A stretch of DNA of 64,000 nucleotides from contig JAPPBX010000087.1 in assembly GCA_026702755.1 (NCBI GenBank), positions 1 to 64,000 on the forward strand, read 5' to 3'. Numbering within the stretch: the first letter of the stretch is position 1; each line of letters begins with the position of its first letter. Both the position numbers and the translations under genes were made by a program. The DNA is from Candidatus Poribacteria bacterium. GTDB lineage: Bacteria; Poribacteria; WGA-4E; WGA-3G. The notes under the pieces were generated by a model. It ran no database searches. It was given only the letters and a program-made list of their open reading frames with translations, and was not told where the DNA came from. This document shows positions 35,355 to 40,413 of this stretch, one piece after another.

Positions 35355-35500
35355 TTTTTCTTGCTCCTTGTTAATAAGCCAAACGTAACACGTCCGTTAA
35401 TTTTAAGGAAATTATAGACAAATTGTGATACTGTGTCAAGCCCGTTTTGCCAATAAAACTCAACGTTTTCGCTGAATTTACGTCTAATATTAAAAAGGAT

Positions 35501-35523
35501 GAGGTTAGAAACCTCGCCAGCGA
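35501..35523 (+). repeat. GGCGAGG-family hairpin upstream of recG
   Basis: GAGGTT-AGA-AACCTCGCCAGCG, a copy with a shortened left arm, 33 bases before the recG start. The upstream extension of the recG frame would translate this repeat, which argues against the longer start. Confidence 0.7.
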
Positions 35524-35555
35524 AAATAACAATATTTAGCACCGATAGAGAAAGT

Positions 35556-38342
35556 ATGGATAACTTCACAAAAATTCTTACTACCATCCGTCGCCCCTTC
35601 CAACAAGAACTTCGGAAGGGATGCAAGGATGATGTCGTTGTTAACGGGTTGGGCAGTTATGTTCAACTATGGGTAAAAAATGGAGATGCGTTTGTTCTGG
35701 ACGCAACTCAGAAAGAGATGTTGAACGGTTTGGCGAACCTCTTTGAAAATTACAAAGGGTTATCGCCTACTGAACGGCAGCGCACACTTGAGGAGGCAAC
35801 GAAACGGATTAATGATGCCCTTGGGCAAGCATCCCGAATCTCCAGTCTTGAAGAAAATCCACCAACACGTTCAGAGCCGACGACCCAACGCACAAGTGGT
35901 AAAAAGAATGGGCAGCAAACCGAGATGCTGCCGCTCTTTAAAAAAATAGAAAACCCGCCAGAAAGATTACCGATACAACAGGAACAGACAGAAGAACAAG
36001 CAATTGATACAAAGCAAAGGGAATCCCTGCCCCTTTTTCAGAATGTGGAGACTTCCCCACAACACGTAGAGAGTACTCCCACGGAAGAAGCCACCGCATC
36101 TGTGCCGATCCCCGACACGCCTGTTGGAACAGACATCACTTCACTCGATTTCTTAGGTGAACCGCTCCAGTATCTCAAAGGTATCGGGCCCCGCCGCGCC
36201 AGTATGCTTCGGGAAGAACTCAATCTTCAAACGGTTGGTGAATTCCTCGCATACTACCCTCGCGATTATATTGACCGCTCCAAGATGATAGAGATTTACA
36301 GAGTGGGAAGACGGGAAGACGATGAACCGGAGACCATCCAAGGTAAGGTCGTCAGTCATACCTCTTCTCCAACTGCAAAGGGAAAACGCATCGGTAAGGT
36401 CTCAATTTACGACGGAACGGGTGTCGCCATGCTCGTCAACTTCGGGAGACGCATCGGCGTTATGAAGGGATTGCTTCCAGTGGATACCGAAGTTGTCGTC
36501 AGCGGCAAATTCACGCGTCGTTACAATGAAATCCAAGCGACCGATTACGAGTTTGAACTGTTCGAGGAAAGCGATGAGACACAGGGTCTGATTCACACCA
36601 AACGGATTGTTCCGAAATATCCACTCACAGCGAAACTTACGGCGAAAATGATGCGTATGTGGATGCGTACCGCGCTTGATGAATATGGACAACAGATCCC
36701 TGAGATTTTACCGCTCGCGCTCCGCCAACGTCAAGGCTTGATTGACAGGCAATCGGCTATCAATGAGATTCACTTTCCGACATCAGAAGCGCATCGAAAA
36801 GCGGCACAAAAACGACTCGCCTTTGAGGAGTTTTTTCTGCTCAGTCTCGGCATGGAGATGAAAAAGGAACACCGGACCTCGGAGGACGGTATCGCGTTCC
36901 AAGTTGGAACGGAAACAGGAGAAAATGTTCCGGCACTGTTACGTGATTTCGTCGCATCGCTTCCCTACGAACTCACCAACGCGCAAAAACGGGTCTTCGC
37001 TGAAATCCAGGACGATATGCGGAAGAAAAACGTCATGAATCGATTGATTCAAGGGGATGTCGGTTCTGGCAAAACTGTTGTCGCAGCGATGGCGTTGCTC
37101 TGTGCGATTGAAAACGGGTATCAAGGCGCACTAATGGTACCGACTGAAATCCTCGCAGAGCAGCACTATTACAATCTTTCGGAGATGCTTGAGCATCTGC
37201 ACAAAACAAACAAGGGGACTGCAGAAGAAGACGGTGGGAAAATAAACGTTGTACTTCTCAAAAGCGACCTCCCCAAAGCAGAACGTGAAGAGGCATTAGA
37301 AGCGATCACGAACGGTTCCGCTGACCTCATCGTTGGGACCCAGGCGTTGATACAGGAAGGTGTGGATTTTCAGAAACTCGGACTCGTCATCATAGACGAA
37401 CAACACCGGTTCGGCGTGATGCAACGGGCAACACTTCGTAACAAAGCGCAAGCGGGAAACGGCGATTTGAAACAGCAGGTTACCCCTCCGCCAGCCCCAG
37501 ATGTGCTTGTCATGACAGCGACACCAATCCCAAGAACACTCGCCTTGACACTCTACGGAGACCTGAATGTGTCCGTTATTGACGAGATGCCACCGGGTAG
37601 ACAGAGGATTAAGACCTACTGGATAAAGGAAAAGGACCGAGAAAAGTTATACGGTAACCTTCGGAAGGAGATCCAACGCGGCAGACAGGCATACATCGTC
37701 TATCCGCTCGTCGAAGAGTCCGAAAAATTGGAAGAACTCAAAGCCGCTACAGAAATGGCAACGCACCTTCAAAATGAGGTGTTCCCTAACTTACGCGTTG
37801 GACTTTTGCATGGGCAGATGAAATCTGTCGAGAAACAGGAAGTCATGGCGAACTTCAACGCACGGAACATTGACATCCTCGTTTCAACGACCGTAATTGA
37901 AGTCGGTATTGATGTGCCGAACGCAACGCTGATGGTAATTGAAAACGCGGAACGGTTTGGGTTGTCCCAGTTGCATCAATTGCGCGGACGCGTCGGACGT
38001 GGCGAGCATCAATCGGCGTGTTATCTCGTTGCTATACCGAAAGGGGACGATTCCTATCAGCGCATTCAGGCGATGATTCGGACCAACAACGGCTTTAGGA
38101 TCGCAGAAGCAGACCTAAATATCCGCGGTCCCGGAGAATTCTTCGGCACTCGCCAATCGGGTGTCCCGAACTTTAAGATAGCGAACATCATCCACGATGC
38201 CACACTTCTGGAGACAGCAAAAAAAGAGGCGGAATTATTAATCAAGGCGGATCCGGCGTTAGTCGCACCTGTACATCAATTGCTGAAACGGATGTTACAG
38301 AAACATTGGCGAGGGAATTTGGAGATAGCGTCGGTTGGTTAG
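35556..38342 (+). CDS. recG: ATP-dependent DNA helicase RecG
   Basis: The 928-residue protein remodels stalled replication forks and Holliday junctions. After a variable N-terminal ~200 residues (long acidic linker with repeated LPLFKK and LPLFQN), the wedge/OB domain begins LQYLKGIGPRRASMLREELN. The helicase core has Walker A GDVGSGKT (500-507), DEQHRFGV (motif II), TATPIPRTLAL (motif III) and QLRGRVGRG (motif VI), ending with the RecG-specific FGTRQSG segment. ATG 35556 is chosen because the 19 codons upstream read a repeat. Longer than E. coli RecG owing to the N-terminal extension, as in many phyla. Confidence 0.96.
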   Translation: MDNFTKILTTIRRPFQQELRKGCKDDVVVNGLGSYVQLWVKNGDAFVLDATQKEMLNGLANLFENYKGLSPTERQRTLEEATKRINDALGQASRISSLEENPPTRSEPTTQRTSGKKNGQQTEMLPLFKKIENPPERLPIQQEQTEEQAIDTKQRESLPLFQNVETSPQHVESTPTEEATASVPIPDTPVGTDITSLDFLGEPLQYLKGIGPRRASMLREELNLQTVGEFLAYYPRDYIDRSKMIEIYRVGRREDDEPETIQGKVVSHTSSPTAKGKRIGKVSIYDGTGVAMLVNFGRRIGVMKGLLPVDTEVVVSGKFTRRYNEIQATDYEFELFEESDETQGLIHTKRIVPKYPLTAKLTAKMMRMWMRTALDEYGQQIPEILPLALRQRQGLIDRQSAINEIHFPTSEAHRKAAQKRLAFEEFFLLSLGMEMKKEHRTSEDGIAFQVGTETGENVPALLRDFVASLPYELTNAQKRVFAEIQDDMRKKNVMNRLIQGDVGSGKTVVAAMALLCAIENGYQGALMVPTEILAEQHYYNLSEMLEHLHKTNKGTAEEDGGKINVVLLKSDLPKAEREEALEAITNGSADLIVGTQALIQEGVDFQKLGLVIIDEQHRFGVMQRATLRNKAQAGNGDLKQQVTPPPAPDVLVMTATPIPRTLALTLYGDLNVSVIDEMPPGRQRIKTYWIKEKDREKLYGNLRKEIQRGRQAYIVYPLVEESEKLEELKAATEMATHLQNEVFPNLRVGLLHGQMKSVEKQEVMANFNARNIDILVSTTVIEVGIDVPNATLMVIENAERFGLSQLHQLRGRVGRGEHQSACYLVAIPKGDDSYQRIQAMIRTNNGFRIAEADLNIRGPGEFFGTRQSGVPNFKIANIIHDATLLETAKKEAELLIKADPALVAPVHQLLKRMLQKHWRGNLEIASVG

Positions 38343-38357
38343 CGAAAGGAGAATCCA

Positions 38358-39053
38358 ATGACATACGACATAACAAAAATGACTCATGCAGAGTTCAGTG
38401 CTTGGCTTGTGCCGATAGTAGACCGTCCGCTCTTTGAATCCCGCGAACGACTTGTCACATTGCTTGCCGAGAATACAGATAGGGAGGCATTGGAAACTGA
38501 GTTCCAAGAGTTTTATGAAGGCTACTGTGGTCTGGCATTTGAGTTAGAGGAGCCTGAGGAGCAGCTGGTTTCAATATTGCGAGAGTGTGATACGTTTGCA
38601 TCGCTACAAGAGCGCGTCATAGTCGTCGAAGCGGTGCGAAAGACATCGCCTGCAGGACGGATAGCACGACGGATGAGCGACAGACCGCTGATCACCGATC
38701 CGCAACCGGAGATAAAGGTATCGGCACTATCGGATGACGAATTCCGTGCGCTGATGGAAACGCTTACGAATTGGGAACTTTTTGCAGCGCGCGAGCGAGT
38801 TGCAAAACTACAGAAGGCAGCACCATCGGTTGCCATGACAGATCAGTTGAAATCTGCGTTTTTTGAGTTTTTCGTGTGCTATCTGGAGTTAGAGCAGTTT
38901 CTTGAGGATTACTATTATGATCCCGATGAGGGATTGGAATTGCGTCCGGAGGTGGCTGAGAGGTTAGAACGGAGCGTGGCAGAATATGAGTCTGGTGAAG
39001 TCAAATCGATTCCGGTAGAGGAAGTAGCAAAAAAATTAGGACTGAAGTGGTAA
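38358..39053 (+). CDS. Antitoxin-like protein with an internal duplication
   Basis: A 231-residue acidic helical protein of no recognised family. Residues ~8-70 (THAEFSAWLVPIVDRPLFESRERL) and ~125-185 (SDDEFRALMETLTNWELFAARERV) are two copies of one ~62-residue domain; each continues with a helix ending near F-x-F-x-x-x-Y. The C-terminus ESGEVKSIPVEEVAKKLGLKW resembles the toxin-neutralising tails of ParD/Phd-type antitoxins. The downstream RelE/ParE-like gene overlaps its stop codon (TAATG). Typical antitoxins are 60-110 residues, so this one is unusually large. Antitoxin function is inferred from position and tail only. Confidence 0.6.
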   Translation: MTYDITKMTHAEFSAWLVPIVDRPLFESRERLVTLLAENTDREALETEFQEFYEGYCGLAFELEEPEEQLVSILRECDTFASLQERVIVVEAVRKTSPAGRIARRMSDRPLITDPQPEIKVSALSDDEFRALMETLTNWELFAARERVAKLQKAAPSVAMTDQLKSAFFEFFVCYLELEQFLEDYYYDPDEGLELRPEVAERLERSVAEYESGEVKSIPVEEVAKKLGLKW

Positions 39054-39310
39054 TGTACAGTTTGGAAATTATGCCAAAAGCGGAAGCAGATTTTGCCCGT
39101 TTAGATGCTACGATTGAACAGCGAATTCTCGACAAACTGAGGGTATTATGCGAAAATTGCGATACACATCGCCACGAGGCTCTCCGAGGCCCACATAGAG
39201 GTAAGTTCCGTTTACGCGTTGCTGGTGCTTATCGAGTTCTGTATACTTTCAATAGACAAACAAGGACAGTTGTTGTTCACGAAGTTAGACATCGGAGCAG
39301 CGTTTATTAA
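39053..39310 (+). CDS. RelE/ParE-family toxin-like protein
   Basis: An 85-residue protein with the family plan: strand MYSLEIMPKAEADF, two helices (RLDATIEQRILDKLRVL), then basic beta strands LRGPHRGKFRLRVAGAYRVLYTF and VVVHEVRHRSSVY. RVAGAYRVLY and the C-terminal HRSSVY are typical of RelE/ParE toxins (mRNA interferases or gyrase inhibitors). It starts at ATG 39053, overlapping the upstream stop by one base; GTG 39047 is an alternative. Final His/Tyr favours RelE-type, but activity cannot be decided. Confidence 0.82.
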   Translation: MYSLEIMPKAEADFARLDATIEQRILDKLRVLCENCDTHRHEALRGPHRGKFRLRVAGAYRVLYTFNRQTRTVVVHEVRHRSSVY

Positions 39311-40334: not shown

Positions 40335-40350
40335 TTTAATAACGCAAGGG

Positions 40351-40413
40351 TACAGGGTAGGTACAAGACCTACCCCTACGGGATACAGGGTAGGCACAAG
40401 ACCTACCCCTACG
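40351..40413. repeat. Tandem repeat of a 30-base palindromic unit
   Basis: Two copies (40351-40380 and 40384-40413) of TACAGGGTAGG(T/C)ACAAGACCTACCCCTACG with one difference. Each contains GTAGG...CCTAC, a hairpin. Lies between smc and the 39366 gene. Confidence 0.85.

What the first reader, a model, noticed from the sequence alone, without database searches (positions are those of the whole stretch)
38358..39310. Toxin-antitoxin-like pair with an oversized, internally duplicated antitoxin
A RelE/ParE-like toxin overlaps the stop of a 231-residue partner. The partner carries two copies of a ~62-residue domain and only its tail looks like an antitoxin tail. Antitoxins of this toxin family normally have one small DNA-binding domain. 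The duplication could create a two-site regulator or a dimer in one chain.
Basis: partly seen in the sequence, partly recalled or inferred. Interest (0 to 1): 0.55.

Follow-up and report, generated by a model that had tools for sequence, protein, structure and literature searches.

The report
Toxin-antitoxin pair with doubled antitoxin
A sponge-associated bacterial lineage carries toxin-antitoxin gene pairs whose antitoxin is two whole antitoxin units fused head to tail, and whose toxin-gripping end appears to be swapped together with the matching part of the toxin, which makes it a natural test case for how such pairs change partners.

Summary
Window 38358-39053 encodes a 231-aa protein; a RelE/ParE-superfamily toxin (39053-39310, 85 aa) overlaps its stop (TAATG). 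Copy 1's tail has diverged; copy 2's tail matches ordinary 70-76-aa antitoxins of a sister family. The window's genome has 4 such pairs, each with a toxin. Of 80 loci from named genomes, all Poribacteria, 51 have an intact toxin, 10 a broken one, 19 none. At the recG locus the last ~22 antitoxin residues and first ~29 toxin residues form two classes, A and B, that switch together at least 5 times on the tree of the body; body and toxin C-half do not follow. Best reading: a type II toxin-antitoxin module whose antitoxin is a one-chain double body carrying an exchangeable neutralising tail. Binding, toxicity and DNA binding are untested. The 'two-site regulator' idea is weakened: the upstream (recG) frame ends 12-23 nt before the antitoxin in 15 of 17 genomes and no convincing operator was seen.

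The parts
38358..39053 (+). oversized antitoxin gene (231 aa + stop)
   Evidence: paralogues and homologues; dN/dS about 0.12-0.14 in copy 1 and in the copy 2 body among 14 orthologues
38358..38708 (+). copy 1 of the antitoxin unit (about residues 1-117), with diverged basic tail (RKTSPAGRIARRM)
   Evidence: hhalign copy 1 against copy 2 E about 1e-23, 109 columns; copies form two clades
38709..38942 (+). copy 2 body (about residues 118-195), ending in DPDEGLEL
38943..39050 (+). copy 2 tail (residues 196-231), the part shared with small antitoxins
   Evidence: PF09720 weak; small-antitoxin profile E=5.5e-12 over 38907-39050
38986..39140 (+). cassette: about the last 22 antitoxin residues plus the first ~29 toxin residues, two classes A/B; the window is class A
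   Evidence: all 22 fixed A/B differences among 14 genomes lie here; class needs 5 changes on the body tree, 1 on the cassette tree
39053..39310 (+). RelE/ParE-superfamily toxin gene (85 aa + stop), ATG overlapping the antitoxin TAA
   Evidence: PF05016 40.4 bits; nearest solved sequences 2khe and 3g5o; fold of a relative, TMt 0.80-0.85 to 2khe, 9g12, 3g5o
35499..38342 (+). recG-like helicase gene (947 aa) directly upstream, 15 nt gap; named recG from its sequence by recall

Best explanation
This is a chromosomal type II toxin-antitoxin module of the RelE/ParE superfamily. Its antitoxin arose from an ordinary small RelB-like antitoxin that gained a helical hairpin of about 45 residues and was then duplicated in tandem and fused. 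Shown here: the duplication of the whole unit, the pairing with the toxin, purifying selection on both genes, and a mosaic 3' end. Inferred: the two units pack as one helical body (a dimer in one chain), the C-terminal tail of unit 2 wraps and blocks the toxin at a surface that includes its first two helices, and unit 1's tail has lost that role. The tail and the toxin's N-terminal helices act as a specificity cassette, replaced as a unit by homologous recombination while the body stays. At the recG locus the pair is probably transcribed with recG, so classical operator-bound autoregulation is unlikely there.
For: Pairing: 4 of 4 in the own genome; 51 of 80 loci with an intact toxin, 10 with remnants. 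Duplication; copy 1 and copy 2 halves of 16 representatives form two clades, support 100. Small relative: 70-76-aa antitoxins with the same tail and no hairpin in 5 genomes of a sister family; the toxin profile found a toxin in 2 of their 5 fetched stretches. Selection: median dN/dS 0.12-0.14 for the body and 0.095 for the toxin within class. Cassette: within body-orthologue groups, Spearman tail against toxin N-half 0.83, partial 0.82, 0 of 500 permutations; all 22 fixed differences at 38986-39140; 5 changes on the body tree against 1 on the cassette tree, AU p=2.4e-6. Toxin fold and conserved R61, R81, Y85.
Against: No binding or toxicity data. 19 of 80 antitoxin loci have no toxin. Over all 1431 pairs, not only near orthologues, the partial correlation of tail with toxin N-half is only 0.22. 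Tail and toxin start are adjacent DNA, so co-transfer may be linkage rather than function. In groups 3 and 4 the divergent stretch runs to the toxin's end.
Confidence: 0.72

Rival explanations
1. Two-site regulator: the duplicated domains are two DNA-binding units that bind two operator sites and autoregulate the operon.
For: Type II antitoxins are generally described as a DNA-binding domain plus a protein-binding domain (PMC2701414, passage read). The tail of copy 1 is basic and conserved: R94, R101, R104, R105.
Against: No DNA-binding family above cut-off for the window protein (1 of 69 members hits a winged-helix model at E=0.0057). Helical bundle without an informative PDB match. Gap of 12-23 nt after the upstream frame in 15 of 17 recG-locus genomes and 11-38 nt in 10 of 10 group-4 loci. 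Promoter-like matches at the chance level, none upstream of the antitoxin.
Confidence: 0.12
2. The body is an independent protein with a function of its own that acquired a toxin-neutralising tail; the toxin is a passenger.
For: 19 of 80 loci keep the body without any toxin trace, and in 10 of these the tail is cut, lost or replaced while the frame stays open (my reading). The body has dN/dS about 0.12-0.14. It is constant where the cassette changes.
Against: The unit including its tail is what was duplicated, and small antitoxins share the N-terminal DEFRxL helix motif as well as the tail. 61 of 80 loci have a toxin or its remnant.
Confidence: 0.2
3. The A/B classes are an old two-allele polymorphism kept across species, not repeated transfer.
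For: Every class B genome has class A relatives, and 5 changes is as many as 5 B rows can need.
Against: Median dS within a class is 0.56-0.75 in tail and toxin N-half against about 1.0 in the body, as expected for more recent exchange; but the toxin C-half is also low (0.50), so this is not decisive.
Confidence: 0.25

Closest known systems
RelBE / ParDE superfamily type II toxin-antitoxin systems (RelE of Thermus thermophilus 2khe; M. tuberculosis RelBE1 9g12 and RelBE2 3g5o)
   Same: toxin family and fold; antitoxin gene first, overlapping toxin gene; RelB-like C-terminal tail
   Different: antitoxin of 231 aa made of two fused units with an extra helical hairpin; no recognised DNA-binding domain; tail plus toxin start exchanged as a cassette
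Unstab_antitox PF09720 / TIGR02574 / NCBIfam RelB-like antitoxins (NF048017, NF046040)
   Same: similarity over the last 30 or so residues; 20 of 69 family members match PF09720 at E up to 0.01, best 2.9e-6
   Different: window protein below the cut-offs; these models are 54-70 positions long
Small 70-76-aa antitoxins of the sister Poribacteria family (L118-L122)
   Same: same tail and N-terminal DEFRxL helix motif; toxin of the same family in L120 and L122
   Different: single unit, no hairpin, not duplicated

Membership tests
RelE/ParE-superfamily toxin (PF05016) | sequence match over the curated cut-off | tested here: met
   40.4 bits against 23
RelE/ParE-superfamily toxin (PF05016) | RelE-like fold | tested here: met
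   on a relative's model (L068): 2khe, 9g12, 3g5o at TMt 0.80-0.85; the window toxin itself was not modelled
RelE/ParE-superfamily toxin (PF05016) | mRNA cleavage on the ribosome (RelE) or gyrase inhibition (ParE) | not testable with these tools
   R61, R81 and Y85 conserved in 52-54 of 54 toxins; that such residues mark RelE activity is recalled
Type II toxin-antitoxin module | two-gene unit, antitoxin first, overlapping or nearly so, recurring together | tested here: met
   TAATG overlap; 4 of 4 in own genome; 51 of 80 loci
Type II toxin-antitoxin module | toxicity and neutralisation | not testable with these tools
   bench only
RelB / Unstab_antitox antitoxin (PF09720) | match over the family cut-off | tested here: not met
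   window protein 15.3 bits against 23.3
RelB / Unstab_antitox antitoxin (PF09720) | small single-unit protein | tested here: not met
   231 aa, two units
RelB / Unstab_antitox antitoxin (PF09720) | DNA-binding domain and operator | tested here: inconclusive
   none recognised by profile or fold search; upstream only one 9-nt palindrome, inside recG

The most novel reading that the evidence does not exclude
The antitoxin is a fixed double body with a plug-in neutralising tail, and evolution switches the specificity of the pair by replacing, in one short recombination step, the antitoxin tail and the toxin helices it grips. This would be a natural specificity cassette cutting across two genes, flanked by conserved DNA that serves as the recombination arms.
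Probability: 0.4. Interest if true: 0.65.

Novelty: new variant of a known kind. Interest (0 to 1): 0.5.

Why it matters
How a toxin and its antitoxin can change partner specificity without passing through a lethal mismatch is an open question. Here nature offers near-matched pairs at one locus in related genomes, with similar body and toxin C-half but a different tail and toxin start, so the question can be tested with ready-made chimeras. The doubled antitoxin also asks whether a type II antitoxin can do without a separate dimer partner and without operator binding.

Tried and rejected
Chance repeat: rejected (0 of 1000 shuffles; profile E about 1e-23). Chance neighbours: rejected. Viral origin: one scan of viral contigs found no relative. 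Outside the order, 0 of 12 genomes of the phylum matched; other phyla were searched only through the one genome-contig scan, which rests on two short peptide patterns. Avoidance of cross-talk between paralogues in one genome as the reason for switching: 24 within-genome pairs are no more distant than label shuffles (mean 0.536 against 0.545, 76% of 2000 shuffles at least as large); no support. Operator and promoter search: nothing above chance. Structure of the complex: attempted with the joined chain, inconclusive. PDB fold search of the antitoxin: best VIA Z 5.3 (rmsd 3.3, 94 aligned) to four-helix bundles, which the tool warns is common; RelB-type or other DNA-binding folds did not appear among the rows shown, which does not exclude them. 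Extra N-terminal domain in some homologues: no convincing family hit. First complex alignment A3 misplaced the toxin rows and was dropped; tests of row choice, final A5.

Choices made after seeing data: classes A and B were named from tails, before the body tree was made; the orthologue threshold of 0.35 was chosen by me and no other was tried. Dropped before counts: the partial antitoxins of L104, L115 and L117 from the alignment of 81; L084 and L116 from the copy 2 profile; from the 14-row DNA analyses L054, because its record starts inside the gene, and L045, L048, L049 and L051, which lack an intact toxin. Alignment A4 used 69 sequences: the window plus 68 of the 73 antitoxin references listed.

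Papers: PMC2701414 passages read; all others only as search listings with the start of the abstract (one search found none). Nothing on this family was seen in those seven searches.

Full report
What is there. The window protein (38358-39053, 231 aa) is followed at once by an 85-aa toxin whose ATG shares a base with the stop codon (TAATG, 39051-39055). The toxin is over the Pfam ParE_toxin cut-off; its nearest solved sequences are RelE of Thermus thermophilus (2khe, E=2e-7) and, weakly, Rv2866 of M. tuberculosis (3g5o, E=0.063). The model of a relative's toxin matches 2khe, 9g12 and 3g5o at TMt 0.80-0.85. Conserved in 52-54 of 54 toxins are R61, H80, R81 and Y85; that such residues mark RelE-type mRNA cleavage is recalled, not tested.

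The antitoxin is a tandem of two whole units. Within the window protein alone, residues 5-70 and 121-193 align with score 53; 0 of 1000 shuffles reach it. With 81 near-complete homologues, the profile of copy 1 aligns with that of copy 2 over 109 columns, E about 1e-23. This includes the tail: RKTSPxGRxARRMG of copy 1 lies opposite K-IPxEEVAKKLG of copy 2. The first halves and second halves of 16 representatives form two clades with support 100, so the duplication most simply happened once, before the paralogue groups arose. Groups 3-5 keep a DPLEGL-like motif in copy 1, groups 1-2 have lost it.

Where it came from. A profile of the family over 84 genomes of the phylum hits 37 of 38 of the genus, 2 of 2 and 9 of 18 of two other genera of the family, 5 of 14 of other families of the order (tail only) and 0 of 12 beyond. 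The tail-only hits are ordinary antitoxins of 70-76 aa with the same tail and the DEFRxL start but no hairpin. In two of the five stretches the toxin profile also found a toxin next to them (L120, L122). Their profile finds complete small antitoxins only in those 5 genomes; in the window's family it hits the tails of the large proteins (one further marginal hit, G027:C191, was not looked at). In the named genome collection 80 loci were returned, all titled Poribacteria. No relative was found among viral contigs.

Pairing with the toxin. Own genome: 4 of 4. Of the 80 loci, 51 have an intact toxin directly downstream, 10 a broken or truncated one (L045, L051, L055, L062, L070, L091, L099, L102, L104, L115) and 19 none. 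Of those 19, L075 ends about 156 nt downstream and L049 has a transposase-like ORF there. In 10 of the 19 the antitoxin tail is itself cut, lost or replaced (L065, L069, L083, L084, L087, L088, L094, L095, L097, L116; my reading). Among 14 recG-locus orthologues, median dN/dS is 0.14 (copy 1), 0.12 (copy 2 body) and 0.095 (toxin within class).

The cassette. At the recG locus two tail classes occur: A (...KKLGLKW; the window) and B (...KELGVKLKCTR), each with its own version of the toxin's first ~30 residues. Mean protein identity between A and B is 0.80 in the body (same as within A), 0.70 in the tail, 0.47 in the toxin N-half and 0.88 in the toxin C-half. All 22 fixed nucleotide differences among 9 A and 5 B genomes lie at 38986-39140. 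On a tree of 1199 columns from the 3' end of recG and the body, the class needs 5 changes, all forced by well-supported branches; on the cassette tree 1 change, support 100/100; body data reject B as one clade (AU p=2.4e-6). Across all body-orthologue groups, tail distance and toxin N-half distance correlate at 0.83 (partial 0.82; 0 of 500 permutations), whereas body distances correlate with it at 0.16-0.22 (230 pairs). Over all 1431 pairs the partial value is only 0.22. In groups 3 and 4 a jump in divergence also begins about 555-600 nt into the antitoxin gene, just after the DPDEGL codons, but runs on to the toxin's end. Two recG-locus genomes have hybrid tails (L049, L051); one lacks the toxin and the other has a broken one, too few to conclude from.

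Structure. AlphaFold2 on 69 family sequences gives an almost all-helical model of the window antitoxin (pLDDT 89, pTM 0.79). Fold searches found only generic helical bundles (Foldseek no match at E up to 0.001; VIA best Z 5.3). Those alignments span residues 3-190, which suggests, without proving, that both copies share one bundle. A joined antitoxin-toxin chain of L068 gave pTM 0.52 with a tail at pLDDT about 65-76; no contact is claimed.

Regulation. The antitoxin starts 12-23 nt after the upstream frame in 15 of 17 recG-locus genomes (two have 142 and 169 nt; the upstream frame is 910-970 aa in 16 and only 104 aa in L079), and 11-38 nt after its upstream gene in 10 of 10 group-4 loci. Upstream of the window pair only a 9-nt palindrome inside recG was seen, and the promoter-like matches are at the chance level and not upstream. 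This speaks against a dedicated two-site operator there; groups 1 and 3 mostly have longer upstream gaps, so it is not excluded for them.

Judgement. A real, conserved toxin-antitoxin module, new in the architecture of its antitoxin and in its mosaic 3' end, within a known kind. The mechanism (tail of unit 2 neutralises; body is a one-chain dimer; cassette sets specificity) is inferred.

Noticed in passing
L063, L064, L068, L073, L074: In these homologues an extra N-terminal stretch of about 157 aa is fused in frame to the antitoxin; relatives of that stretch form the start of a separate gene of about 320-360 aa (29 of 58 genomes of the family match), which lies directly upstream of the antitoxin in L065 and L142.
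   Followed up: partly
L065:276-6065: The pair's group-1 relative (here without toxin) sits between an AAA-ATPase-like gene plus a 323-aa gene and a helicase resembling type III restriction Res subunits (names by recall): it looks like a defence-type island; PADLOC gave no hit for the antitoxin, the toxin or the N-terminal stretch.
   Followed up: partly
window 40348-40413: Two tandem copies of a 33-nt repeat (94% identical) near the start of the 343-aa ORF on the minus strand.
   Followed up: no
L126 and L127 (G028:C2, G027:C3): Two antitoxin genes in a row, each followed by a toxin match (one partial in L126), in the second genus of the family.
   Followed up: no
L123 (G063:C21:35400-37300): The antitoxin appears as two overlapping frames, copy 1 and copy 2 apart, with an intact toxin after them: a frameshift or a naturally split double antitoxin.
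   Followed up: no
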